35,382 nucleotides of DNA. Source: a bacterium (lineage in GTDB: Bacteria; Chloroflexota; Anaerolineae; Epilineales; Epilineaceae). Below, in pieces: positions 1,021-34,783 of this stretch (positions are counted from its first letter, which is position 1; each line of letters opens with the position of its first letter). The notes under the pieces are model-generated. The model was given only the letters and a program-made list of their open reading frames with translations, did not search any database and was not told where the DNA came from. The position numbers and the translations under genes were made by a program. The stretch lies in assembly GCA_003576755.1 (NCBI GenBank), contig QEVT01000031.1, forward strand, positions 1-35,382. The letters are read 5' to 3'.

Positions 1021-1100
1021 CCGCCCGGCATCGGGACGACGCCTCCGCCACGCCGTGGGTCGCGGTCCGCCGCGGCTGGCCACGCAACCCCCCGAGGCAC

Positions 1101-1250
1101 GCGTTCAACCACGCGTCACCCCCCTGCCGAACGCATAGGGGGCAGGTTTGAAACCTGCCCCTACCGGGTCCGGATCATCGTCGGCAGCATCCGGGCGTCA
1201 TCGGCGCATCTGCTCAGCCCGGCCCGACACCGCCGACCTGGGCTGAACAG
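1101..1250. repeat. Dispersed palindromic repeat R1, copy A
   Basis: About 150 bp nearly identical to 25083-25234. The core is a palindrome, GGGGCAGGTTT-G-AAACCTGCCCC, followed by CTACCGGGTCCGG and a conserved tail ending in CTGGGCTGAACAG. A shorter degenerate copy lies near 7794-7833. It sits in the gene-free stretch 1021-1382 together with a terminator. It carries no credible ORF; it resembles a non-autonomous, REP-like interspersed element. Confidence 0.8.
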
Positions 1251-1292
1251 GCGCCCTTCTATCTCCTACTTTCTATCTCCTATCAGACAACA

Positions 1293-7793: not shown

Positions 7794-7833
7794 GGTAGGG
7801 GCGGGTTTGAAACCCACACCTACCGGGTCCGGA
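7794..7833. repeat. Degenerate partial copy of repeat R1
   Basis: GGTAGGGGCGGGTTTGAAACCC-ACA-CCTACCGGGTCCGGATC resembles the palindromic core of R1 copies A and B but lacks their long tail. The surrounding 7364-7960 contains ORFs without recognisable domains; I see no supportable gene there. Confidence 0.55.
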
Positions 7834-7966
7834 TCGCGACTGCCGTGCGGCCGGGGGTGGCGGTCGGCGCGGGCTTCACCGCCCGGCGCGTAGACGCGCG
7901 GCGCTACAGCGGCCGTCGACGGCCGACGGGGGCGGCGATGGGTGGGGCAATCGAACAATCAGCGTG

Positions 7967-7994
7967 ACGGGGCGGCCTATGTCGGCCGCCCCGT
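7967..7994 (+). terminator. Perfect 11-bp stem-loop, terminator-like
   Basis: ACGGGGCGGCC (7967-7977) pairs with GGCCGCCCCGT (7984-7994) around a 6-nt loop, followed by TT. No clear gene precedes it; it may insulate the DGR target promoter region. Confidence 0.4.
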
Positions 7995-8038
7995 TTGCGC
8001 GTTTCGCGGCGGCGACAGCGGCAAGAGCGGTCGGCAGC

Positions 8039-8192
8039 AAGCAAAGAAGTGGGTGGCGATCACGGTAGATGCGGTGGGTGATAAGCAAAGAAGTGGGTCG
8101 CGATAGGCAAAGAAGTTGTTGGAGTTAGCCAAAGAAGTCGTCGGTGATAGCCAAAGAAGTCGTCAGCGATAGCGGTAGACGTGGGCGGGAAT
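8039..8192. repeat. Seven-unit 22-bp tandem array upstream of DGR target 1
   Basis: Exactly seven contiguous 22-bp units (boundaries at 8061, 8083, 8105, 8127, 8149, 8171). Five carry the core CAAAGAAGT near their start; units 2 and 7 are a second type with CGGTAGA. The 22-bp period is not a multiple of three, arguing against a coding repeat, and equals about two helical turns, so sites would lie on one face of the DNA. It ends ~90 bp before the promoter candidate. Confidence 0.85.
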
Positions 8193-8283
8193 GGCCGAAG
8201 GTGCAGGTGAATGCGCAGGAGCCTGTCATACGAATGTCTATAATATTGTCGCCATCATGCCTCACACGTCGGGTGGGTTGTCG

Positions 8284-8312
8284 TTCAGATTCTGCGGTCT
8301 TTGCGGTATGAT
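8284..8312 (+). promoter_or_regulatory. Candidate sigma70 promoter of the TIR-NACHT-FGE gene
   Basis: TTCAGA (8284-8289), 17 bp, TATGAT (8307-8312), in a locally AT-richer island. A second isolated TATAAT lies at 8239-8244. Either start would leave a leader of more than 150 nt before the ATG at 8479, including a small GAGAG-GTTA-CTCTC hairpin near 8329-8342. Confidence 0.45.
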
Positions 8313-8478
8313 ATTGAAGCCATTGACGAGAGGTTACTCTCGAAGATCCAGTCGAGCGTAACGTGACGTTCTCGCAGGCTTTGTCTCGCCTGGATTGCCT
8401 GGACTGACCGCATCTCGCACATCAACTTGCCGCTGTCGGTGGAGCGCGATACCATCCCCATGCCATGGATCCTGCCAC

Positions 8479-11466
8479 ATGAGCGAAGCCCTTCGCTCGC
8501 CCCCGTCGCCGGGAGGGCATGCCCTTGCGCCGCTGCAAACCGTCGCCACGCCGCGCGGCGAGCGTCGGCCGGCGGTGTTCGTGAGCTACGCGCATGCCGA
8601 TCGGGCGTTCGTCGAGCGGTTGCTGGAGGACCTGCGGGCGGCGGGGCACGCGTGTTGGATCGACACGACAGCCATCAAGGGTGGCGACGAATGGACGCGG
8701 GCGATCACCGCGGGCATCGAGAACGCCTACGCCTTCATCAGCGTCGTCAGCGCCGCTGCCAACCGCAGCCGCTGGGTGCAGCGGGAGTTCCTGTGGGCGG
8801 ACCGGAAAGGGCGCTCGATCTTCCCGGTGCTGGGGACGGGCGACGAGCTGCCGATCTACATGGTCGACCGGCAGGCGATCGCGCTGCACCCGGACTACTC
8901 GGGCGGCATCAGGCGGCTGCTGGAAGCGCTGCCGGATCCGGCAGCGGCGGCGGCAGTGTTGGGCGCGGCGGTGCGAGATCCGGCCGGCCGCCGGGCGTTG
9001 GAGCTGGCGTACTTGGACCGTCTCAGGTTCGAAGAGCTGCAACACGCCGACCTGTACACCCCGATGGCCGGCACGGCGCGGGCGGCGCCCAAGCCGAAAC
9101 GACCGGGCGGCTTGCCGTCGGTGGTGGCGCGGCCCGAGGCCATCGACATGCGCCAGCAGTTCGAGGTGTTGCGGGCCATGCAGAGGGCAGACCCGGACTC
9201 AGTGGCCGGGGCGCCGCCGGAGCCGAAGCGGTTCGACAACATCCTGGCGGCGGTCGGCGCGGCCAGACGTGCGGTGGTGCTGGGCGAGCCGGGCGCGGGC
9301 AAGACGACGACGCTGTGGAAGCTGGCGAGCGACGCGGTGGCCACCGCCGAAGGCGATCCGGCGGCGCCGATCCCGCTGTTGGTCCGGCTGGGGCGGTGGA
9401 TCGACCCGGACGAGCCGCTGGAGTCCTTCGTCGCCCGCGAGCTCGGCGATCTCGCGGTGCACCTGGACGCGCTGCTGGCGGAAGGGCGGGCGGTGCTGCT
9501 GCTGGACGGGCTCAACGAGACGCCGGCGGCGGCGCGCGAGGCCAAGGCCGCCGAGGTGCGTGCGCTCCTCGAGCGATGGCCGTCGCTGGTGGCGGCGGTG
9601 ACGTGCCGCGAGCTGGACTACACGGACAAGCTGGACCTCGCGCTGGACCGCATCACGATCCGCCCGCTCGACGCGCCGCGCATCCTGGCGTTCGTCACGC
9701 GGTACTTGACGGCGACGGCACCCGGCGACACGCCGGAGGCGAGGGAGGCGGCCGGCTCGGTGCGGGCGGACGACATGTTCTGGAAGCTGGCCGGCGGCGC
9801 CGCCTTGCGTGGGGTGTGGTCGGTGTGGGAGAAGGCAGGAGCATCGTTCGAGCAGTTCTGGTCGGCGCCGGACATTCCGCGGGCCGACCCGGACGTTTAC
9901 ACGAAGACCACGGTCGCCCAGGACACGGAATGGAACAACGCGGTCAAGAACCCTCGCGGGCTGATGCGGCTGGCGGCGAACCCGTACATGCTGTACATGC
10001 TGACCGACGTGTACGAGCTTCTGGGCGACGTGCCGGCCAACCGGGCGGCGCTGTTCGCGAGCTTCGTAGCGGTGTTGCTGAAGCGTGAGGAGATTCCGGA
10101 CGACGAGGCGACACCGCTGATCGAAGCCCTCGCGTCGCTGGCATATGCGATGCAGGTGCGGAGCGCGGCGGTCGACGACGACGGGGGTGCGGTGACGGCG
10201 GTGCCGCGTGCCACGGCGTTGGAGCTGCTTGCGGAACGCCAGATCTACCGCGCGGCGAGCGCCAGCCTGATCACGGCCGACGACGAGGTGCGCTTCACCC
10301 ATCAGCTCCTGCAGGAGTACTTCGCCGCCCGGCGCATGGCCGATCTGATCCACAGCGGCAAGCTGCAGGCATCCGAGATCTGGCCGCAGGAGCGGTGGTG
10401 GGAGCGCACGGGCTGGGAGGAGGCGGCGGTGCTGCTGGCGGGGCTGATGACGGACGACTGCACGGTGGCGCTCGAATGGGTCGCCGCCGCCAACCCGGAG
10501 GTCGCGGCCCAGTGCGCGCTCCGCAGTGGGGCCAAGGTGCCAGAAGCAACGCTGGCGCGGCTGAGGGATCTATGGATTCCGCGCCTCACCGACCTCGGCC
10601 GTGACCCGGCCCCCGAAGCCCGCGCCGCCGTCGGGCGTGCCTTGGGCGTGCTCACCATCGACGGCCTGCCGCTCGACAACCGGCCGGGCGTCGGGGTGCT
10701 GCGTGACGCGGATGGTCGGTGGATGCCGGACATCGACTGGGTGACCGTGCCGGCCGGTCGTTTTGTCTACCAGGATGGCGAAGCCCGTCGCGAGATCGTC
10801 CTGCCGGCCTTCGACATCGCGCGCCATCCGGTGACGTGGATCCAGTTCCAGGCATTCGTCGACGACCCTGACGGCTACGTTGACGACCGGTGGTGGGTCG
10901 ATCTTGACGACCGGCCTTCGGCGCCGATGGCGGCGGCCTTGCCGATCGCGAACCACCCGCGTGAGACGGTGTCGTGGTACGAGGCGGTGGCATTCTGCCG
11001 CTGGCTCACCGATCGCATGCGCGAGTCGGGGCGAATCGAAGCGGCTGGCATTGTGCAGCTCCCGACCGAGGAGCAGTGGGAGAAGGCGGCACGTGGCACC
11101 GACGGGCGCGAGTACCCGTGGGGCGACGGTTATCGCGTGGGGCATGCCAACATCAACGAGACGTGGGAACGGATCGGCCCCCACAACCTTGGCCGGACGA
11201 GCGCAGTGGGGATATACCCGCACGGAGCATCGCGTTGCGGCGCTCTGGACATGGCGGGGAATGTGTGGGAGTGGTGCTTGAACGAGTATGGTAAGCCTGA
11301 CCGAGTAGGAGTCTCGGGGAATGCCGCTCGCGTGTTGCGCGGGGGCTCGTGGAACAGCGACCGGCTCAGCGCGCGGTCGGCGGCCCGCGGCCGCGACCGC
11401 CCGCACGACCGTAACGACAACATCGGGTTTCGGGTGTGTGGGTCTTCCCCCATCTTGAGGCACTGA
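8479..11466 (+). CDS. DGR variable protein 1: TIR-NACHT-FGE sensor
   Basis: 995 residues from ATG 8479; upstream in-frame TTG 8395 is less likely, and no strong ribosome site is seen for either. TIR domain at ~31-155: VFVSYAHAD box at 33-41 and the putative NADase glutamate E103 in SRWVQREF. NACHT NTPase: Walker A GEPGAGKTT at 269-277, Walker B LLLDGLNE at 340-347, and the helical HQLLQEYFAARR segment near 605. FGE domain from ~753 (DWVTVPAGRF) to 991, with LPTEEQWEKAARG, GNVWEWC and RGGSW. Residues ~949-991 are VR1, varied by the adjacent DGR. The architecture is that of an NLR-like receptor: lectin-fold sensor, oligomerising NTPase and probable NAD-cleaving output. RGGSW is followed by hypervariable residues rather than the FGE catalytic cysteines, so the domain should bind rather than catalyse. 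Confidence 0.93.
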   Translation: MSEALRSPPSPGGHALAPLQTVATPRGERRPAVFVSYAHADRAFVERLLEDLRAAGHACWIDTTAIKGGDEWTRAITAGIENAYAFISVVSAAANRSRWVQREFLWADRKGRSIFPVLGTGDELPIYMVDRQAIALHPDYSGGIRRLLEALPDPAAAAAVLGAAVRDPAGRRALELAYLDRLRFEELQHADLYTPMAGTARAAPKPKRPGGLPSVVARPEAIDMRQQFEVLRAMQRADPDSVAGAPPEPKRFDNILAAVGAARRAVVLGEPGAGKTTTLWKLASDAVATAEGDPAAPIPLLVRLGRWIDPDEPLESFVARELGDLAVHLDALLAEGRAVLLLDGLNETPAAAREAKAAEVRALLERWPSLVAAVTCRELDYTDKLDLALDRITIRPLDAPRILAFVTRYLTATAPGDTPEAREAAGSVRADDMFWKLAGGAALRGVWSVWEKAGASFEQFWSAPDIPRADPDVYTKTTVAQDTEWNNAVKNPRGLMRLAANPYMLYMLTDVYELLGDVPANRAALFASFVAVLLKREEIPDDEATPLIEALASLAYAMQVRSAAVDDDGGAVTAVPRATALELLAERQIYRAASASLITADDEVRFTHQLLQEYFAARRMADLIHSGKLQASEIWPQERWWERTGWEEAAVLLAGLMTDDCTVALEWVAAANPEVAAQCALRSGAKVPEATLARLRDLWIPRLTDLGRDPAPEARAAVGRALGVLTIDGLPLDNRPGVGVLRDADGRWMPDIDWVTVPAGRFVYQDGEARREIVLPAFDIARHPVTWIQFQAFVDDPDGYVDDRWWVDLDDRPSAPMAAALPIANHPRETVSWYEAVAFCRWLTDRMRESGRIEAAGIVQLPTEEQWEKAARGTDGREYPWGDGYRVGHANINETWERIGPHNLGRTSAVGIYPHGASRCGALDMAGNVWEWCLNEYGKPDRVGVSGNAARVLRGGSWNSDRLSARSAARGRDRPHDRNDNIGFRVCGSSPILRH
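11324..11449 (+). repeat. DGR variable repeat VR1
   Basis: 126 bp aligned without gaps to TR 11656-11781 (constant offset 332). There are 13 differences, all at the 27 A positions of TR; no C, G or T of TR is changed. Changes fall at 11357, 11359, 11363, 11366, 11369, 11389-11390, 11392-11393, 11395, 11399, 11407 and 11416. The last 29 bp (11421-11449) are identical to TR and are the expected initiation-of-mutagenic-homing segment. Confidence 0.97.
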
Positions 11467-12374: not shown

Positions 12375-13567
12375 ATGAATAGCCCGGCTTTCGAGCGCGT
12401 GGCTGCGTGGGACAACCTGCTCATGGCGTTCCGGCGAGCGGCGCGAGGGAAGAGAGGCGCCCGGTCGGCAGCGGCATTCGAGTACCGGGTGGCGGATCGA
12501 CTTCTGACGTTGCACGATGAACTGGTCCATGGACGGTATCAGCCTGGTCCATATGTACACTTTCATATTCATGAGCCGAAGCTCCGAAAGATCAGCGCCT
12601 CGCCGTTTCGCGATCGTGTGGTCCATCATGCGCTCTGCCAGGTGATCGAGCCCCGCTTCGAGCATTTGTTCATCGCTGACAGTTACGCCAATCGCGTCGG
12701 CAAGGGAACACATCGGGCAGTAGATCGGTTGCAGACGTTCTCCCAGAAGTATCGATACGTGTTGCGCGCGGACGTGGTGCAGCACTTTGCCGCATTGGAC
12801 CATGCTGTGCTCAGGGCGACTTTGGCCAAGGTCATTCCTGAGCATGACGTCATGCATCTGGTCAACATCATCATCACCAGCGGCATCGGTGTGCTGGACG
12901 ACACATACACGATGAAGTGGTATCCAGGCGATGATCCTGAGGGCGTGACAGAACGTTTGATCGAAGGGCTTCCTGGGAGCGCCGGCATCTTGCCGGCTGG
13001 AAGCCGGCGCTCCCAGGATCTGCCACCCGCCCGGGTCAGGGCGATGATCTGTGGGCCACGACCAGGCCGCGCGGGCTGCCGATCGGGAACCTGACGTCGC
13101 AGTTTTGGTCGAACTGCTACATGAACCCGTTCGATCACTTCGTCGTCCGCGAACTGCGCTGCAAGGCTTACCTCCGCTACGTCGACGACTTCGCGCTGTT
13201 TGCCGACGATCGCCGGCAGCTCTGGCACTGGCGAAGGGCGATCATCGAGCGCTTGGGATCGCTGCGGCTCAGCATCCACGAATCATCGGCCCAAGTGGTG
13301 CCCGTCGCCCATGGCATCCCATGGCTCGGCTTCGTCGTCTATCCCACCCATCGTCGCGTCAAGGCCCGCAACGTGCGCAACTTCACCCGCCGACTCCGTG
13401 CCCGCTGGACCGACTACTGCGCCAACCGCATCAGCTTTGCCGAGTTCGACGCCAGCGTGCAAGGCTGGATCAACCATGTTCGATACGCCGATACTTGGGG
13501 TCTCCGCAGGCATGTGCTCGGCCGGCCCATGCCGCGCGAGGGGCCGAGGTTCGGCAAGGCGCAATAG
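12375..13567 (+). pseudogene. DGR reverse transcriptase, interrupted by a 103-bp element
   Basis: The first 187 codons (12375-12935) contain palm motif [15 protein letters not shown] with D133. The reading frame is then broken by an inserted sequence. The downstream part (13040-13567) resumes in another frame with the DGR signature [13 protein letters not shown] (motif 4) and RYVDDF (motif 5). Deleting 113 bp (insert plus one copy of the 10-bp duplication) joins YPGDD to [18 protein letters not shown] and gives 359 residues, normal for DGR RTs; YVDD would be residues 231-234. As it stands, translation from 12375 runs through the insert and stops at 13094, before motif 4. The 3' part could only be made separately, for example from ATG 13121. 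Confidence 0.93.
12937..13039. mobile_element. Small palindromic element (MITE/REP-like) inserted in the RT gene
   Basis: 103 bp flanked by direct repeats GGCGATGATC at 12927-12936 and 13040-13049, interpreted as a target-site duplication. The element begins CTGAGGGC and ends with GGGTCAG, giving only about four terminal inverted bases (CTGA). Its centre is a perfect 16-bp stem (12971-12986 with 13003-13018, TCCTGGGAGCGCCGGC) with a 16-nt loop. No ORF; mobilisation would need a transposase elsewhere. Confidence 0.8.
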
Positions 13568-13683: not shown

Positions 13684-16570
13684 GGGAAGACCCACACACC
13701 CGAAACCCGATGTAATGAAAGCGGTCGTGCGGGTGGCTGAGGTCGCGGGCCACCGACCGTGCGTCGTGCTTGTCGTCACCCCACGAGCCCCCGCGCAACG
13801 CGCGATGGGCATTCCCCGCGACTCCTATTCGGTCCCGCCTTCCGTACTCGTTCAAGCACCACTCCCACACATTCCCCGCCATGTCGAGGGCTCCTACCGG
13901 AGACATACCGGCTGGATACATGCCGCCGGCTACGGTGCGCCCCAAACGGCTTTCGGCCGTGTTCGCCTTCTCCGAATCCCACGCCGGCCCCCACGGGAAC
14001 TCGTTCGCGGCGTTGCCCCCTGTCGCCGCCTGCTGCCATTCCCACTCCGTCGGCAACCGCACGACTTGCCCTGCCGCCAACTCGCCCAGCGCCTGTATAC
14101 GCGCCGTTAGCCAGCGGCAGAACGCAACCGCGTCGTACCACGAGACGTTCTCGGCGGGACAGTTGGGCTTCTGACGATACTGCTCCCCTGGCTCTTGATC
14201 CTGAGACAGCCCGTCCCACCACCGCCGATCCCCATACCCGCCCTCAGCCTCGACGAACGCCCGGTACTGCGCCCATGTCACCGCATACTTCGCGATCCTG
14301 AACGGCGACACGTCGAACTCCGCTCCCTCTCCCCTGTCAACGTCAATCGTCACCCGCCCACCCGGCACCTCGCACCACACGATGTCCGGCAGCCCGTCCG
14401 GCCGCAGCCCCACACCCGGACGCGGGTCGCCGATCGCCGCGAGCCGGTCGCCGGTCTCCGCACGGCGGTCGTGGCTGGTCGTCGGATCGCTCAGCTCGTC
14501 CTGCAGCCGCTCGGCTTCAGGGCGAATGAAGGCCTCCTCGTCGTCCGTCAAGTCGGGCTGCAACTGCTCCAGCATCGGCGGCAACAGCGCCAGCCACTCG
14601 TGCGGGCGCAAGAGCGCCCGGCTCTTGCCCCGCGCGACCCATTCCGCCGCCAGCGTGCGCACCTGCCGCAGCAGCACGTAGTGCTCGCGCCGGACCTCGA
14701 TCCACTCCGCAAGCCGCGGCCAGTGCGTGAAGAGCGCCTCATGCGCCACCCCGACCGTCGGGGACTCCCCTTTGTCCGTGACGAGCAACCGCGCATCGAC
14801 GAAGGCCTCGACCAACCGCCTCGCAGGATCGTCCGCCTCAACCTGCGCCTTCGACACCCTGCGCCGCGTCGGCACGCCGCGCTCGTCCACCTCGACGAGC
14901 TGCCGGAACACGTCCGTCAACTTGCCCTGTACTTCGGTCGGGAGACCGCCCAGCGTGGCGTCCGCGCGCCGCGCGATCGCGCCCTTGACGCCGCCAAAGG
15001 CTTCGTACGCCTGCTGCGTCAACCGCCCGTCTCCCGACCGCCGTTCATAGAGCTCCGACAACGCAAACGCCAGCAGCGCCAGGCTCCCCTCGCCCGACCC
15101 GGCGTCGTCGAGGACGCGGTCCACCAGCCCGTCGTCGAAGTCCAGCCCGGCCCGGTACGCCGGCTGGGTCGTCATCGCCCGCAGCGCCGACCGGTCGGCC
15201 GCGGCCAACGGATACGTGCCGGCACCGCGCAGCACCGCGGCCAGCCCACCCGCCACGCAGTGGTCGTAGAAGTCCGCGCGCACTGTCGCCACCACCCGAA
15301 CGGCCTCCATCGCGGCCAGGTCCACGATGGCCTCGAGAAACGCCGGACGGTGTCGCGCATCGACGATCGTGAACACCTCCTCGAGCTGATCGACGAACAC
15401 GACGAGCCGCGCCCACTCCGGACGGCCGGCCACCACCGCGTCGACCACCGCACGCCGTCTCGCCGCATCCCGCAGGTGCTCCGCAACCTCGCGCGGTGCC
15501 CCGCCGCCGGCGCCGAGCACCGGCTTCAGCGCATACGCCAGCGCCACGAACGGATCGCCGCCGGCCTCGCCCGGCGTGAAGCGGTCGGCCAACACCCAGT
15601 CCTTGCCGCCCTCGACCGCGTTGGCCTTCAGACGCGGCACCAGACCCGCCGCCACCAGCGACGACTTCCCCGAGCCCGATGCCCCGACCACCGCCACGAA
15701 GCGCGTCGCCGGATCGGCAAGGGCGCGGATCAAGCCGTCGACCTCCGCCGTGCGGCCGAAGTAGATCGGAGCGTCCTCTTCGGTGAACGCCCGCAAGCCC
15801 GGGAACGGCGAGCCTTGCCACAAGTCCGCCGCCGCGACGCCGTGCCCGCCGCTCCCCCCTCGGGCAGTCGCGCGTCCGCCAGGGCTCCCACTGCCGACGG
15901 GCGCTTCTGCTCCGGCCTCCATCAACCGCGCGATACGCTCCCGCAAGTGCGTTTCGACCATCTTCTCGAACGCGGCCGGCGTCTCGTACGGGTTGAAGCC
16001 GCGCCGGATCGAACCGTCGGGCGCGGCGAACTCCGCGAAGAACGCCTCCACCCGCCCCCACTGCGCCTCCTTGTCGGCGCGCAAGGGGTCCCGCGCCCCC
16101 CACTTCGGCTCCTCCGTCCGGCGATAGACCAGCACATCCGGCCGTCCGCCGGCGTCCGCCGCCCGCACGGCATCCGTGTACTCCCACTCCGTGCCCGACC
16201 AGTAGCGGCTGCCGTCCGGCTTGATGAACTCGCCCCCCGCATCCTCCGGCAGCGGCGTGCCCATCCGCGACCAGAACACCACGACAACGATGTCGCACTC
16301 CGACGGGCGCGGCAGCCCGTTGGCGATCGCTTCCTGCGGGATCAAGTTCGCCAGCATCGGCGTGCCGCCGCCGGGCGTGTCCCACGCCACTGCCTCGATC
16401 TGCACCTTGCCGCGAAACGATGGGTCGTAGCGCAGCTTGTCCAGCACATCGCGCGCAACCTTGCGCTCGTCGGCCACGTCGCCCGGCGACGCCAGGAACA
16501 CGCGCACCGTGCGCGGCGCTCCTGCCGCACCGTCGCCCAGTCCCCCCGCGTTCCTCGGCCAATCATCCAT
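13673..16570 (-). CDS. DGR variable protein 2: DUF4062-nSTAND1-FGE sensor
   Basis: 965 residues from ATG 16570; an in-frame GTG at 16660 would add 30, and ribosome sites are weak for both. DUF4062 domain from ~22 (VRVFLASPGDVADERK). nSTAND1 NTPase: preceding FPGLRAFTEEDAPIYFGR, Walker A GASGSGKSS at 296-304, Walker B VVFVDQLEE around D394, and THWPRLAEWIE in the C-terminal part. FGE domain from ~727, with VSWYDAVAFCRWL, GNVWEWCLNEYG and RGGSW; residues ~921-963 are VR2. The FGE C-terminus shares long near-identical DNA with target 1, showing recent common origin of this domain although the effector and NTPase modules differ. It lies tail to tail with the RT gene. Likely a second diversified NLR-like receptor; DUF4062 probably acts as signalling or effector module. 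Confidence 0.92.
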   Translation of the reverse strand: MDDWPRNAGGLGDGAAGAPRTVRVFLASPGDVADERKVARDVLDKLRYDPSFRGKVQIEAVAWDTPGGGTPMLANLIPQEAIANGLPRPSECDIVVVVFWSRMGTPLPEDAGGEFIKPDGSRYWSGTEWEYTDAVRAADAGGRPDVLVYRRTEEPKWGARDPLRADKEAQWGRVEAFFAEFAAPDGSIRRGFNPYETPAAFEKMVETHLRERIARLMEAGAEAPVGSGSPGGRATARGGSGGHGVAAADLWQGSPFPGLRAFTEEDAPIYFGRTAEVDGLIRALADPATRFVAVVGASGSGKSSLVAAGLVPRLKANAVEGGKDWVLADRFTPGEAGGDPFVALAYALKPVLGAGGGAPREVAEHLRDAARRRAVVDAVVAGRPEWARLVVFVDQLEEVFTIVDARHRPAFLEAIVDLAAMEAVRVVATVRADFYDHCVAGGLAAVLRGAGTYPLAAADRSALRAMTTQPAYRAGLDFDDGLVDRVLDDAGSGEGSLALLAFALSELYERRSGDGRLTQQAYEAFGGVKGAIARRADATLGGLPTEVQGKLTDVFRQLVEVDERGVPTRRRVSKAQVEADDPARRLVEAFVDARLLVTDKGESPTVGVAHEALFTHWPRLAEWIEVRREHYVLLRQVRTLAAEWVARGKSRALLRPHEWLALLPPMLEQLQPDLTDDEEAFIRPEAERLQDELSDPTTSHDRRAETGDRLAAIGDPRPGVGLRPDGLPDIVWCEVPGGRVTIDVDRGEGAEFDVSPFRIAKYAVTWAQYRAFVEAEGGYGDRRWWDGLSQDQEPGEQYRQKPNCPAENVSWYDAVAFCRWLTARIQALGELAAGQVVRLPTEWEWQQAATGGNAANEFPWGPAWDSEKANTAESRLGRTVAGGMYPAGMSPVGALDMAGNVWEWCLNEYGRRDRIGVAGNAHRALRGGSWGDDKHDARSVARDLSHPHDRFHYIGFRVCGSSPIV
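13684..13809 (-). repeat. DGR variable repeat VR2
   Basis: 126 bp, gap-free match to TR on the opposite strand. About 14 differences are at TR adenines and about 10 at other bases (mostly transitions), unlike VR1. The 3' homing segment (13684-13712) is identical to TR and VR1. Encoded residues are RGGSWGDDKHDARS...DLSHPHDRFHY. Confidence 0.93.
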
Positions 16571-16642
16571 GGTCGCGCGATGATACCCATCCCGCTTGCG
16601 CGGCGCCAACCAACCTCCAACATCGTCGCGCAGCACCATCAC

Positions 16643-16716
16643 CACCTTGCCCGCCGACACCGTCGTTCACCACCACAGCCACCTTGCCCGCAAACACCGT
16701 CGTTCACCACCACCGC
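16643..16716. repeat. Two 37-bp tandem repeats in the divergent intergenic region
   Basis: 16643-16679 and 16680-16716 share CACCTTGCCCG, CACCGTCGTTCACCACCAC and differ at few positions. They lie between target 2 (minus) and the SLATT operon (plus), in the upstream region of both. Confidence 0.7.
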
Positions 16717-25029: not shown

Positions 25030-25082
25030 AGGCCAGTCGCAACCTTGACTCTTGCCTCGAAGAAGATATGGACTTGTCGTAC

Positions 25083-25234
25083 GCGTTCAGCCACTCGTCA
25101 CCCCCCTGCCGAACGCATACGGGGGCAGGTTTCAAACCTGCCCCTACCGGGTCCGGGCCATTGTCGGCAGCATCCGGGGCGTCATCGGCGCATCTGCTCC
25201 GCCCGGCCCAACGCCGCCGACCTGGGCTGAACAG
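25083..25234. repeat. Dispersed palindromic repeat R1, copy B
   Basis: Nearly identical to 1101-1250 in the same orientation, with the palindromic core GGGGCAGGTTT-C-AAACCTGCCCC. It lies in the gene-free stretch between the XRE operon and Uma2. Confidence 0.8.
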
Positions 25235-25240
25235 TCCCAC

Positions 25241-25330
25241 GTCCCTCTCCCAGCATTGGGAGAGGGACCGGCTGAGCGCAGCTCAGCCAGGGTGAGGGCC
25301 CGGAGGGGCGCAGAGGAGCCGGCCCTCACC
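25241..25330. repeat. Cluster of three perfect hairpins
   Basis: GTCCCTCTCCCA (25241-25252) pairs with 25257-25268; GGCTGAGC (25270-25277) pairs with 25281-25288; GGTGAGGGCC (25291-25300) pairs with 25321-25330. This composite palindromic element follows R1 copy B directly and may also end transcription of the Uma2 gene. Confidence 0.65.
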
Positions 25331-30406: not shown

Positions 30407-32245
30407 TCACTCAGGCACGGCGAGCTCGGCGCAATCCGAGATGACCGACGGCTGGAGAATCTCGATGTTGGCGTTGGCAGGCCACCGACCAAGCAGGGCG
30501 TACGCGGTCAACGCCGCCGACGCGCCGACGATCGCGATGTAGGCGGTCAGGAAACCGGTTGAGAACCGCACATGGGCAACCCGGAGCGCGAATCGGCCGG
30601 CCGCTCGCATGGCCAAGAAGGCCACCGATCCGACGAGCATGGTGGGCATCAGCATCAGGTAGTTCCAGGCATACCCCGCCGACGTCAGGTCGCCGATCGA
30701 CCGGCAGCCTGCCGGCCATTGGGTGACGCTGAGCCACAGCAGGCCCAGGACCGCCCCGAGCACACCGCCGACGAAGGAAATGCGGTGGGCGCTCAGCGTG
30801 TGCCCCCCTGGGAGCGCCACGACGAAGCGGTAGAACCACGCGTACACCTGCTGGAGCAGCACCGCATGCACGAGCAGGAGCCCCGTCGATCGCGCGAGCG
30901 TCAGCAGCGCGCCCGGGAAGCCGGGCGTCAGCTCGGACGCGACCATTGCCAGCAGCGCGACACCGACGACCATCCATCGGCCGCGCGTCAGTTGCTGTTC
31001 CCCGACGTGGCGCCAGCGCCAGTCCAGGATGCCCGGCACGAGCGCGCGGTAGAAGACCTCGTAGCGGGCGTCGCGCTCGCCTCCGTCGATTCCGGAGGCT
31101 GCGAGTGGCCTGAGCACGCGCATATCGGACCGGCACAGGCGTTCAACCACCGACGCGATGCGGTCGTCGGGCAGCTCGGTGTAGAACGCCAACGTGCCGA
31201 CGCCGAGGGCTTGCATCGATCCGTCCGGCGTGACCAGGTACTGGAAGATGCGCGCCGCGATCTCACGATCCGATCGGTTCAGCCGCGCGAGGGACCGGTC
31301 GATGTGGTCGCCGACGATCTGTGGAACACTTCCCATTCGACGGAGGCTCGCGCGGCGCAGGGTGTTCGACCCGCGGCCGACCTCCTCCGCCCACAGCCGT
31401 TGCATCACCAGCTGGAGATACGGGGCCTGGACGCTGACGTCGACCTGGATGTCGTCCACGCCGCCCACGGCTTGAGAGGTCGCCTCGGGCACGGCGAGGT
31501 CCGCGTCGATGCTCTCCGACTGCAGTCGCTTGACGACGTCCTCCGCCAGCCCGGGCTCCAGACGGATGGGTTCGTCTCCAGGGCGGGATCGGTTGAAGGC
31601 CTCCAGCGGGCCTTCGACCGCATCGATGGCGGCGGCGGGCTTCAAGTGCTGAAGCTGGATGTAGCTGCGCAGCACCGCGGCCATCGACCCGGCAAGGCGC
31701 TGGAGCATGGCGAGCGCATCCTCGCGGATGGCGATGAGCACGTGGATCGGGCACTCGGGCTGCGCCAGCAGGTGCATGAGCGCGACCGGGAACGTGCGGG
31801 AGTCCATCGTCAAGAGGTCGACACGCTGGGTGGCGGGATGAAACACGAAGTACTCTTCGAACTGATCGAGGAGCAGCACAAGCGGGACATCCAACACCGG
31901 CGCGAACCGGCTGGCATACGTCGCCAGCGCGCTGTCATCGGGATCGGCAGTGGGGACTCCCGCCACGCGCGCCACTTCGGCCCCGATCGCCCGTTTCAGG
32001 TTGCCGACGACGTCGCCCTGCCAGTCCCGGAACACCACAGCGGTGCGGCCGGGTGTCTGGTGCACGCGATAGGCCACCCCGGCTTCCAGCAGCGACGTCT
32101 TGCCTACGCCGCTGGGGCCGCTCAGGACGGTCAGGCGGCTGGCGTAGACATGGTCGAGCACCACGCGCGCCTCGCGGTCGCGCCCGAAGAACAGCGGGCC
32201 ATCGCGCTCTTCGAATGCCGCCAATCCCTTGTATGGTGAATCCAT
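30407..32245 (-). CDS. nSTAND1 NTPase with C-terminal membrane domain
   Basis: 612 residues. N-terminal YKGLAAFEERDGPLFFGRDRE is the classical lead-in of nSTAND1. Walker A GPSGVGKT at 43-50, Walker B LVLLLDQFEE with D127. A winged-helix-like region follows (LARLNRSDREIAARIFQYLV) and a helical region to ~430. The last ~180 residues hold about five membrane helices (MVVGVALLAMVASEL; LLLVHAVLLQQVYAWFY; ISFVGGVLGAVLGLLWL; LMLMPTMLVGSVAFLAM; FLTAYIAIVGASAALTAYALL). It lies 37 bp after the SIR2-like gene, same strand. A membrane-anchored sensor/switch ATPase is likely; the membrane domain may instead be the killing effector. Confidence 0.88.
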   Translation of the reverse strand: MDSPYKGLAAFEERDGPLFFGRDREARVVLDHVYASRLTVLSGPSGVGKTSLLEAGVAYRVHQTPGRTAVVFRDWQGDVVGNLKRAIGAEVARVAGVPTADPDDSALATYASRFAPVLDVPLVLLLDQFEEYFVFHPATQRVDLLTMDSRTFPVALMHLLAQPECPIHVLIAIREDALAMLQRLAGSMAAVLRSYIQLQHLKPAAAIDAVEGPLEAFNRSRPGDEPIRLEPGLAEDVVKRLQSESIDADLAVPEATSQAVGGVDDIQVDVSVQAPYLQLVMQRLWAEEVGRGSNTLRRASLRRMGSVPQIVGDHIDRSLARLNRSDREIAARIFQYLVTPDGSMQALGVGTLAFYTELPDDRIASVVERLCRSDMRVLRPLAASGIDGGERDARYEVFYRALVPGILDWRWRHVGEQQLTRGRWMVVGVALLAMVASELTPGFPGALLTLARSTGLLLVHAVLLQQVYAWFYRFVVALPGGHTLSAHRISFVGGVLGAVLGLLWLSVTQWPAGCRSIGDLTSAGYAWNYLMLMPTMLVGSVAFLAMRAAGRFALRVAHVRFSTGFLTAYIAIVGASAALTAYALLGRWPANANIEILQPSVISDCAELAVPE

Positions 32246-32282
32246 GGCGGAACCCCTTCCAGGTTCCGATCCTTCAGGAGCG

Positions 32283-33275
32283 TCAAGTGAGCGGATCGTG
32301 TGGAGGGCGTCCGGCTTCCATGCCCGCGACGAACTCGTTCATCGGCATGTCGAAGATCAAGACGTCGCGTTTGAGCCACAGGTCCCGCTCGATCGGGGAC
32401 ACGGAACGCTGAATGGACCAGGATTGGAACGCCCGGCTCCGGTAGCAGTCGCGGTCGTTGTAGACCTGATGCCACATCAGGCGATACGTCCAGTCGCGAA
32501 GACTGTACCCCAGGAACAGGAAGCGTCGCTGGGCGAGCGCCGCCTTCAGGAACATCGGCAACGCCACGCTGCTCCCCAGCCGTTGCAGCGCAACGGCGTA
32601 GTCGTTCTCGGTCACGCAATAGTCGTCGCGGGCCGACTCGCGTATGTCCACCGTGCCGTGGAGCTTGTAGACGACATCGCGTGATTCGACGTCGATGTGT
32701 AACGCCTCGATGCCGTTCGCGAACACCGGCCTGAGGTCTGACTCACCGGCCTGGCGATGGTAGAGGACGGCCGGGTGCGCCAGGGGATCCAAGCCGTTTC
32801 CGCCGGGCGACAGGGGAGACCCGTCGAAGGGCTGCACCAACAAGTCGAATGGGCGTCCACGGGCCTCGAAGACATCTTCGATCAGGGTGTCGTAGTTGGT
32901 GGTGATGACCAACAGCTTGGCTGGAACGGTCGCGATGAGGTCATGCAGGGGTCCTTGCGGGAAGCGCCGGCTGAAGACACGCCTGAGCGTGTTGCGCAGC
33001 CCGGCGCGCGCTTTCCTGACCTCGTAGTACTGCGCTGCACGCGCCAGGTCGGAGTCGGTTTCCCCATTCGGGTAGACCTGTGAGCTGAGGTGGCGGCTGA
33101 GCTCGGCCCCCGACGGCGGCCAGATCGGGTTCTCGATCGTCCAGCGGTAGTCTTCGGGTCGCGAGGCGATGGACGCGCCGGCGCCGAGGAACAGAACCAC
33201 GCGGCGGCTATTCAGAGCATCCCAGATCTCGGCATATGGGGGTGCCGCACCGGCGACAGCCTGTGGATCGGGCAT
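32283..33275 (-). CDS. SIR2-like NAD-binding effector protein
   Basis: 330 residues from ATG 33275 (GAGGGA upstream); ATG 33293 is an alternative overlapping the preceding stop. SIR2 motifs are present: VVLFLGAGAS (26-35), LLVITTNYDTLIED with N127, and YKLHGTVD with H206, followed by FLFLGYSLRDWTYR. No zinc cysteine cluster is seen, so it belongs to the SIR2-like domains of defence systems, which deplete NAD, rather than to protein deacetylases. Its position between a lipoprotein and an nSTAND1 ATPase suggests a multi-gene conflict system in which the STAND protein senses and SIR2 executes. Confidence 0.9.
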   Translation of the reverse strand: MPDPQAVAGAAPPYAEIWDALNSRRVVLFLGAGASIASRPEDYRWTIENPIWPPSGAELSRHLSSQVYPNGETDSDLARAAQYYEVRKARAGLRNTLRRVFSRRFPQGPLHDLIATVPAKLLVITTNYDTLIEDVFEARGRPFDLLVQPFDGSPLSPGGNGLDPLAHPAVLYHRQAGESDLRPVFANGIEALHIDVESRDVVYKLHGTVDIRESARDDYCVTENDYAVALQRLGSSVALPMFLKAALAQRRFLFLGYSLRDWTYRLMWHQVYNDRDCYRSRAFQSWSIQRSVSPIERDLWLKRDVLIFDMPMNEFVAGMEAGRPPHDPLT

Positions 33276-33286
33276 CACGGGATCCC

Positions 33287-34783
33287 TCAGCATTCGAAGA
33301 AGCACAGACCGATGCGGATGTTCAAGATGATGGCTTCCGAAGTCGTGCTCTTCTTGTTCGGCAGCGGCTTGATGATCTCACCGGTAAGCTTGGCCGGGAT
33401 CACGATGGTGGTGGCAGTCGAGTTGAATTGGCCGAACCACTTGTCCGCGGTGCCGTCCCGTGTAGCGCGAATCGCGTAGGTTCCGACAGCCACGGTCTGC
33501 CCGTCGCTGTCGATCGGCGAGTCGACGATCACGGTGCCCAAGAGCTCGCCTTCGGTCGGCTCGGCCGGCAACGGCGTCGGCGTGGGTGTCGGGGCGGGTG
33601 TGGGGGTCGCGGTGGCCGTCTGAGCATGCGCCGTGGACGCCCACGTCAACCAGTCGGGCCACCATCGCGCGAGCACGGCCGCCATCCGCGCCACCGGGTG
33701 CGGCGGCGGCGTCGGCGAGTGGCCGACAAAGGTGCGGCTGATCACCGTCGTGGCGATCATGCTCGCACGGCGGGCCGCGACGGCTGCACGACCTTCCAGG
33801 TCCGGCACCGTGGCATCCACGTTGAGCGCCGACTCGCCGGCCTCGATCAGTCCCGCCGTCCGCAGGTCGGCTTCCGCCTCGGCCATCCGCGCTCGCATGG
33901 CCTCGCCTTCAACGGCGGTGAGCAGGTCGCGCGGCCGTGGCCCGAAGCAGAGCTGCATGTTGCCCCACGCCTGGCAGATCAGCGCGTGCGTGAGCACCGA
34001 CTGGGGGGTTGGCGTGTCGCGGCCAATGCGGAGGTCGGCGTCGCGCGTGATGGTGGCACCAGCGGTCTCGATGTTCCCGGGCGCCAAGTACACGATCCGC
34101 GCGCGATCGCCCCCCATCCCGGACACCGTGACGAGATACACGTCGGGCTTGAGCACGGTGTCGTCGCCGGCGGCCAAGGGCACCGGCCGGCAGGTCCGAA
34201 GCACTCCGACGACCGTCTGGCGACCCTGCGCGAATAGCGCTTGCGGCAATGGAACCGTGGGGACCCGCAGCGGAACGCTCATCAACAGAATGCCATGCGT
34301 GCCCGGGCTCAGGTCCTCGTGCGGCGGCAAGGCGAACGTCACGGTCTTCGCCAAGTTCACATCGGCCGGGGTAAGCTGGAACCGGGCGAGGAGGGGGGCG
34401 AGTCGGTCGAAGTCGGGTGTGAACGACAGGCCCGGTGCCGGCTCGCCTGTCGAACCATGGGCAAGCGTGACGATCTGCCTGCCCTCGCCGGATGCCCCCG
34501 TCGGGCTGTTCGCAGCCAGGGTATGACCGATGCCCGGGCAGGCGATGCCGGGGTCGACGAATGCGGGGTCGACGAGGTTGGTTGACCCTGGCATAGGTGT
34601 GGTGGGCGTCACGGCCGGCGGCGCTGGCGTGCCGACGGTCGCCTTGTCGACAGGACTGGGCGGGCTGCCGACCGGTTCAGGTTCAGGCTCCGGCTGCCCG
34701 CACCCCTGCAACATCCACGAGAGCCCCAATCCAACCGCGGTGGCGATCAGCACAAGGAACCGGCTGCGTCTTTGTGTCAACAT
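33287..34783 (-). CDS. Putative lipoprotein, unknown function, in SIR2-STAND operon
   Basis: 498 residues. N-terminus MLTQRRSRFLVLIATAVGLGLSWMLQGCG has a lipobox with C28. Residues 30-65 are a Pro/Thr/Glu linker. A mostly beta domain with conserved-looking segments (VTFALPPHEDLSPGTHGILLMSVPLRVP, KPDVYLVTVSGMGG) follows. Residues ~415-432 are a PTPTPTP linker, then a small beta domain (LGTVIVDSPIDSDGQTVAVGTYAIR). Ends CFFEC at 33287, abutting the SIR2-like gene, so probably first in the operon. I do not recognise the family. Confidence 0.7.
   Translation of the reverse strand: MLTQRRSRFLVLIATAVGLGLSWMLQGCGQPEPEPEPVGSPPSPVDKATVGTPAPPAVTPTTPMPGSTNLVDPAFVDPGIACPGIGHTLAANSPTGASGEGRQIVTLAHGSTGEPAPGLSFTPDFDRLAPLLARFQLTPADVNLAKTVTFALPPHEDLSPGTHGILLMSVPLRVPTVPLPQALFAQGRQTVVGVLRTCRPVPLAAGDDTVLKPDVYLVTVSGMGGDRARIVYLAPGNIETAGATITRDADLRIGRDTPTPQSVLTHALICQAWGNMQLCFGPRPRDLLTAVEGEAMRARMAEAEADLRTAGLIEAGESALNVDATVPDLEGRAAVAARRASMIATTVISRTFVGHSPTPPPHPVARMAAVLARWWPDWLTWASTAHAQTATATPTPAPTPTPTPLPAEPTEGELLGTVIVDSPIDSDGQTVAVGTYAIRATRDGTADKWFGQFNSTATTIVIPAKLTGEIIKPLPNKKSTTSEAIILNIRIGLCFFEC

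What the first reader, a model, noticed from the sequence alone, without database searches (positions are those of the whole stretch)
8039..8192. Seven exact-period 22-bp repeats upstream of DGR target 1
Units keep strict 22-bp length while their sequence diverges, with two unit classes (five CAAAGAAGT, two CGGTAGA). Fixed helical phasing suggests cooperative protein binding before the sensor gene's promoter, or copy-number switching.
Basis: partly seen in the sequence, partly recalled or inferred. Interest (0 to 1): 0.55.

Follow-up and report, generated by a model that had tools for sequence, protein, structure and literature searches.

The report
Phased 22-bp arrays beside HU-like genes
The seven 22-letter repeats are real, and similar evenly spaced arrays recur through this bacterium and its relatives, often beside a gene for a DNA-packaging (HU-like) protein, so they look like docking strips for such proteins rather than a switch for the neighbouring sensor gene.

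Summary
In detail: seven ungapped 22-bp units lie at window 8041-8194, in two sub-classes that share A5 G6 A7 and G16/G18. The array is not private to the DGR target. The same MAG (class inferred as Anaerolineae) holds four more arrays of the same family, and a Candidatus Sumerlaeia MAG holds a copy identical over units 1-5.

More generally, ungapped period-22 arrays with different unit sequences are the commonest non-codon-multiple tandem period in random stretches of two relatives. They are linked to genes for HU-like proteins (Pfam HU-HIG, 26 of 28). 12 of 30 HU-like loci have a period-22/44 array in their flanks, against 3 unlinked arrays in 1.10 Mb of a relative. Three of three isolated arrays compared, the window's included, match an HU-linked array of their own genome best.

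Best explanation: the window array is a satellite operator array. An HU-like protein, probably the one encoded at contig C219, binds it cooperatively on one DNA face and forms a local nucleoprotein structure. Binding is inferred, not shown. Promoter control of the sensor gene is not supported; copy-number switching is untested beyond one unit of difference between two phyla. Closest known: IHF-binding RIB/BIME repeats and REP-RAYT pairs.

The parts
8041..8194 (+). array of seven 22-bp units (units 1,3,4,5,6 class SCAAAGAAGT; units 2,7 class CGGTAGA)
8019..8040 (+). possible degenerate unit 0 (CGGCAAGAGCGGTCGGCAGCAA), 20 of 22 identical in L040
7969..7992 (.). GGGGCGGCC..GGCCGCCCC hairpin; 7 such places in the genome, 4 of them beside a 22-bp array (C149, C219, C268, C248)
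8004..8150 (+). stretch shared with Candidatus Sumerlaeia contig L040; units 1-5 identical at 110 of 110 positions; homology starts about 8004
8195..8337 (.). lower-GC stretch after the array, 86 of 124 aligned positions identical to L040
8338..8442 (.). conserved block shared with L040 (82 of 104 identical), nature unknown
8479..11466 (+). TIR-NACHT-FGE protein, DGR target 1; neighbour, not shown to be controlled by the array

Best explanation
The array is a satellite operator array of a two-part system of this bacterial lineage. A small HU-type DNA-binding protein (HU-HIG family) is encoded next to one array of 22-bp-spaced sites, and further arrays with the same site sequence are scattered elsewhere. 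The window array belongs to the CAAAGAAGT family, whose HU-linked member is on contig C219. I infer that the C219 HU-like protein (or a close paralogue) binds the seven sites cooperatively, on one face of the helix (contacts every 11 bp). It would wrap or bend about 150 bp into a compact nucleoprotein structure that acts as a local chromatin boundary, silencer or supercoil sink. At this locus the structure would sit between resident genes and the acquired DGR/TIR island. Shown here: array family, spacing, conserved positions, linkage to HU-like genes, sharing of site sequence between HU-linked and solo arrays, presence in Sumerlaeia. Inferred: binding, cooperativity, wrapping, function.
For: Family: 14 of 17 CAAAGAAGT occurrences in the 4.41-Mb genome lie in four arrays, counted from the listed places; a fifth array, lacking the exact word, is on C438. 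All units of the family are exactly 22 bp. In 34 pooled units, columns are far from evenly variable (0 of 2000 simulations): A5 G6 A7 in 32-33 of 34, G16 and G18 in 32 of 34, others down to 13 of 34. AGA and GNG centres are 11 bp apart. No RNA fold above shuffles (z -0.89 and -0.02) and no Rfam match. HU link: 30 HU-like loci, 12 with a period-22/44 array at z>=5.5 (9 downstream, 3 upstream), or 10 of 28 without the two loci that led me there. In G002, 5 of 12 HU loci carry one, against 3 unlinked arrays in 1.10 Mb sampled (expectation about 0.11, Poisson about 1e-7, my arithmetic). 20 control loci of other genes (90 kb): no period-22 array. E. coli 250 kb: no period that is not a multiple of 3. 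Site sharing: three isolated arrays match the HU-linked array of their own genome best (C149-C219 0.73, C306-C248 0.78, G002 C53-C28 0.60; median of all pairs 0.285). HU nature: 26 of 28 match PF18291; the profile finds 27 PDB chain sequences, all named HU, IHF, histone-like or TF1. The C219 and C248 proteins (84% identical, different arrays) have no difference at residues 28-70 but 6 at 71-88, the stretch corresponding to the HU arm (longest clean run p=0.002).
Against: No binding data. HU sequence and array sequence are only weakly correlated over 12 pairs (Mantel r=0.19, p=0.06), and the 84%-identical pair has dissimilar arrays (0.36). 18 of 30 HU loci show no period-22/44 array at z>=5.5 (three of the 30 have short downstream flanks). 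Two of the 12 are weak (z 5.8, 5.9). The window array and three sisters have no HU-like gene near. The Sumerlaeia genome that holds the array has no HU-like match (0 of 1), so the array can persist without it. G033's two strong random-sample arrays (L253) are not near its HU genes and have a different, palindromic make-up.
Confidence: 0.5

Rival explanations
1. The array is a multi-operator that regulates the TIR-NACHT-FGE sensor (DGR target 1) from upstream of its promoter.
For: It lies 284 bp upstream of the ATG of target 1 on the same strand, in a lower-GC stretch; one sigma-70-like site at 8284-8312 against 0.1 expected.
Against: Sister arrays stand beside unrelated genes. In L040 the FGE gene is convergent with the array. 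Most HU-linked arrays are downstream of the HU gene.
Confidence: 0.1
2. The arrays are dispersed minisatellite or MITE-like repeats without function, tolerated in intergenic regions like the MITE-like tandem repeats described at DGR loci of Thiohalocapsa.
For: Other dispersed repeats lie around the arrays (170-bp and 57-bp families). The L040 copy sits in the 3' end of a gene that its nearest relative keeps longer. Dore et al. 2024 report MITE-like tandem repeats at DGR loci (passages).
Against: No indel in the 34 pooled units although units diverge by about 30%; near-invariant positions; linkage to HU-like genes; same spacing with unrelated unit sequences; 110 of 110 identity in units 1-5 against 74% in the flank.
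Confidence: 0.15
3. The arrays are real protein-binding arrays, but for another protein (transcription factor or transposase); HU-like genes are only frequent neighbours.
For: Several cores are dyads typical of dimeric repressors (ATCACSGTGAT, 7 of 7 in C248 and C306). Weak HU/array co-variation. No HU-like gene in the Sumerlaeia genome.
Against: The linkage to one gene family is strong, and solo arrays copy the HU-linked core of the same genome.
Confidence: 0.17
4. The array is an iteron-type origin, or the end of a mobile element that carried the DGR module: contiguous 22-bp direct repeats followed by AT-richer DNA.
For: Contiguous 22-bp iterons are known from plasmid origins (recalled). The array is followed by lower-GC DNA in C149, C219 and L040, homology to L040 starts at the array's left edge, and the L040 left gene is cut short there.
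Against: No replication initiator or transposase was seen right beside the arrays of this family, but not every neighbouring gene was scanned. C105 and C438 have no comparable GC shift. At least five arrays in one genome. No HU-like relative on 72,556 plasmid or 50,697 phage records.
Confidence: 0.08

Closest known systems
RIB / BIME-1 repeats of E. coli (IHF-binding repeats at 3' ends of transcription units)
   Same: Dispersed extragenic repeats, mostly downstream of genes, tied to a member of the HU/IHF superfamily.
   Different: RIBs are REP-flanked single IHF sites (recalled); here 5-8 contiguous 22-bp-phased sites with locus-specific sequence, and the protein gene sits beside its own array. 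No binding shown here.
REP/REPIN with RAYT
   Same: A protein gene carries its cognate repeat next to it, with solo copies elsewhere in the genome; several paralogous pairs per genome.
   Different: No transposase: the protein is HU-like. Repeats are direct tandem arrays, not flanking inverted REPs.
Plasmid iterons (22-bp iterons, e.g. R6K and pPS10; recalled)
   Same: Contiguous direct repeats of 22 bp, about two helical turns, several in a row.
   Different: No initiator gene seen; many arrays per chromosome with different units.
MITE-like tandem repeats at DGR loci of Thiohalocapsa PB-PSB1 (Dore et al. 2024, PMC10907252; passages read)
   Same: Tandem repeats beside DGR loci with diversified conflict-system targets.
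   Different: Those match terminal inverted repeats of IS elements and are predicted to form stem-loops; this array has no RNA fold above shuffles.

Membership tests
RIB/BIME (IHF-binding extragenic repeats) | contains REP palindromes around an IHF site | tested here: not met
   no consistent dyad in the CAAAGAAGT family (4-6 of 7, p 0.02-0.91 over five arrays); no RNA fold above shuffles
RIB/BIME (IHF-binding extragenic repeats) | bound by an HU/IHF-family protein | not testable with these tools
   only genetic linkage to HU-like genes
REPIN-RAYT | RAYT tyrosine transposase gene flanked by the repeat | tested here: not met
   linked gene is HU-HIG
Plasmid iteron origin | initiator (Rep) gene beside the iterons | tested here: inconclusive
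   no Rep family among the neighbours scanned; not every neighbour was scanned
DGR component (TR/VR, accessory) | array confined to DGR loci | tested here: not met
   sister arrays stand beside genes with no DGR-type match among the neighbours scanned
HU-HIG (PF18291), for the linked proteins | match to the Pfam model | tested here: met
   E<=0.01 in 26 of 28 members; above the gathering score in the three members whose scores were shown
MITE | terminal inverted repeats and target-site duplication | tested here: inconclusive
   only one boundary seen, in L040; no inverted partner array in the window

The most novel reading that the evidence does not exclude
A lineage of Anaerolineae has made a set of paralogous HU-type proteins sequence-specific, each with its own 22-bp-phased address array beside its gene and satellite arrays elsewhere. 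This would be a modular, addressable chromatin system that marks or insulates chosen intergenic sites, among them defence and DGR islands.
Probability: 0.3. Interest if true: 0.88.

Novelty: new variant of a known kind. Interest (0 to 1): 0.7.

Why it matters
HU is the textbook non-specific bacterial chromatin protein. A family of HU-like proteins each paired with its own phased array would be a rare case of sequence-addressed HU and a bacterial counterpart of boundary or centromere-like chromatin. It gives a directly testable protein-DNA pair: the C219 HU-like protein and the window array. The array also offers a marker for how such strips move between phyla.

Tried and rejected
RNA element: folding of both strands no better than shuffles, Rfam empty. 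Coding repeat: conserved positions recur every 22 bp whatever the codon phase, so a protein repeat is unlikely (inference). Phage or plasmid origin of the array: no match of 7960-8480 in 50,697 phage and 72,556 plasmid records. Class-wide presence of this unit sequence: the sequence model found it with E<=0.001 in 6 of 396 genomes; the five other than G000 are single weak hits (21-24.5 bits) without a visible array when I read the printed stretches. Exact doublet CAAAGAAGT-N13-CAAAGAAGT: 38 stretches in the species collection and 10 in viral contigs; of these 48 only L040 scored as this family with model R1. A second viral pattern gave 4 stretches, not followed up apart from an HU-like search. 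My first column-heterogeneity test used a wrong null and is replaced, in which only 6 of 16 single arrays reach p<0.05, while the pooled family is decisive. HU-like genes elsewhere: none in viral contigs by peptide patterns (28 candidates, 0 confirmed). In-print check: paper searches found no description of such HU-array pairs; the library is open-access only. The 'other phyla' loci L028-L075 are no fair control for period 22 because they were selected by a 22-bp pattern.

Full report
1. What is there. The window holds seven contiguous 22-bp units at 8041-8194. Classes: A (SCAAAGAAGT, units 1,3,4,5,6) and B (CGGTAGA, units 2 and 7). In 40 order-1 Markov versions of the window z reaches 5.2 at most, the array 10.2. 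A worn unit 0 may precede it (8019-8040). A GGGGCGGCC hairpin stands at 7969-7992.

2. It is a dispersed family. The own genome (G000, 4.41 Mb, 489 contigs, 81.67% complete) has sister arrays at C105:9970-10124, C219:2780-2934, C268:about 14005-14180 (minus strand) and C438:17265-17440. Each has 6-8 units, always exactly 22 bp. The class of G000 is inferred as Anaerolineae, because G038 ('same class') carries a contig of the same length and match position as WFSD01000255.1, titled Anaerolineae bacterium. Pooled over 34 units the columns are very unequal: A5, G6, A7, G16, G18 nearly fixed; 10, 11, 13, 15 near random. The two fixed groups are 11 bp, one helical turn, apart.

3. Neighbours of this family's arrays. 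C149: TIR-NACHT-FGE with DGR parts. C268: Phd/YefM antitoxin gene and a TIR gene. C219: HU-like gene on the left, Uma2 and a type IIG restriction-modification gene on the right. C438: PemK/MazF toxin gene on the left. C105: M20 peptidase gene, whose reading frame runs into the array and stops in unit 3. Four of five lie near defence- or toxin-antitoxin-like genes, but I have no background rate for that.

4. Copy in another phylum. A contig of Candidatus Sumerlaeia MAG_26 (JABWBI010000006.1, L040) holds the array with one A unit fewer. Units 1-5 are identical at 110 of 110 positions, the right flank at 168 of 228 (74%). If the array had drifted like its flank, 110 of 110 would have a chance of about 3e-15, so the array is either constrained at every base or was exchanged more recently. 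L040's left gene has a match in 21 of 21 genomes searched, itself included. It diverges from its nearest relative (62% identical) at the array's edge and stops there, about 35 residues short. The FGE-domain target gene in L040 points towards the array. An assembly chimera near the contig end cannot be excluded.

5. A wider phenomenon. An ungapped period scan shows period 22 repeatedly with other unit sequences. Random stretches of G002 (same family, 1.10 Mb, z>=5.5): periods that are not multiples of three are 22 x4, 10 x3, 14 x2, 23 x1. G033 (same class, 0.40 Mb, chosen before I knew of HU): 22 x2, 8 x1. Random contigs of G000 (0.19 Mb): none. E. coli K-12 (0.25 Mb): none. In G000 two more arrays, C248 and C306, have the dyad core ATCACSGTGAT. 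C248 was found through its hairpin and C306 had been fetched because of a weak model hit, so neither is a random find.

6. The link to HU-like genes. Both C219 and C248 have, just left of the hairpin and array, a gene for a protein of about 134 residues matching HU-HIG. Searching with it gave 6 good paralogues in G000 and a match in 5 of 60 genomes, own included (G000 6, G001 8, G002 13, G012 1, G033 3). Of 30 loci examined with up to 1.5 kb of flank, 12 have a period-22/44 array at z>=5.5: nine downstream (C248, C219, C403, C157; G002 C65, C64, C25; G001 C336 and C267, weak) and three upstream (G002 C13, C28; G001 C231). Near misses, not counted: period 23 at G002 C49 and period 21 at G033. 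18 loci have no period-22/44 array at that threshold. 20 control loci have none. Each HU-linked array has its own core, for example TTGCA, GGAGCACNGTGAAT, TGTCT-N5-AGACA, TTCAAGAA, GTAGCCTTCG.

7. Cognate sets. Comparing column profiles in all rotations and both strands, the three solo arrays tested match the HU-linked array of their own genome best (C149-C219, C306-C248, G002 C53-C28). Related HU proteins sometimes have related arrays (C403/C157 0.79; G001 C336/C267 0.54), but overall the correlation is weak (Mantel p=0.06), and the closest HU pair, C219/C248, has unlike arrays. That pair differs at 21 residues, none in 28-70 and six in 71-88, where the alignment to HU structures puts the DNA-contacting arm (the arm's role is recalled knowledge). 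This fits a change of specificity but does not prove it.

8. Reading. Best reading: operator arrays of HU-type proteins, phased so that dimers line up on one face. The window array is a satellite of the C219 pair. The molecular outcome (boundary, silencer, supercoil sink) is a guess from the company it keeps and from IHF-binding RIB elements. The title of Boccard and Prentki 1993 (RIBs at 3' ends of transcription units) was seen only in the reference list of PMC2817692, of which I read passages. For PG0121, an HU-like protein tied to an inverted repeat at a capsule locus, I read the abstract and outline (PMC3969353). For Dore et al. 2024 I read passages.

9. The phasing idea is right in spirit. 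The tie to the sensor promoter is not supported. Switching is untested.

Noticed in passing
window 1099-1266, 25081-25250; related 7798-7887; L019 2964-3134: A dispersed repeat of about 170 bp (90% between the window copies, about 84% to C219); the 7798-7887 relative carries a GTAGGGGCGGGTTT...AAACCC palindrome, and one copy starts 30 bp after the C219 array.
   Followed up: partly
window 12975-13031; L017 7706-7762: A 57-bp repeat, 98% identical, lies at the end of the first RT reading frame in the window and about 545 bp from the C268 array.
   Followed up: no
window 12375-13567: The DGR reverse transcriptase seems split into two reading frames (12375-13094 and 13121-13567); only the second has a weak RVT_1 match.
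   Followed up: no
window 16619-16713: Tandem repeat of period 37 (2.6 copies).
   Followed up: no
window 30407-33305: nSTAND1 NTPase beside a SIR2-like gene with ThsA-like matches: possible defence operon.
   Followed up: no
window 8338-8442 and L040 860-960: Block of about 100 bp shared across two phyla, with open reading in several frames; no Pfam match for one frame.
   Followed up: partly
L253 8960-9257 and 11253-11504 (G033): Period-22 arrays with palindromes whose arms change together along the array, next to gene 3' ends, not near HU-like genes.
   Followed up: partly
L032, L057, L058, L059, L061 (rumen Bacteroidales): 11- or 22-bp tandem arrays of the type AAAGAAGTGAC, unrelated by model R1; no HU-like gene of this family in these loci.
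   Followed up: partly
L045 3555-3834 (Halanaerobiaceae): Another 22-bp tandem array (TCTTTGATGATACACTTTTACT type) in an unrelated phylum.
   Followed up: no
L175 10669-12171 (G002), L019 2252-3719: Uma2 nuclease-like genes stand beside the array and the HU-like gene at two loci in two genera.
   Followed up: no
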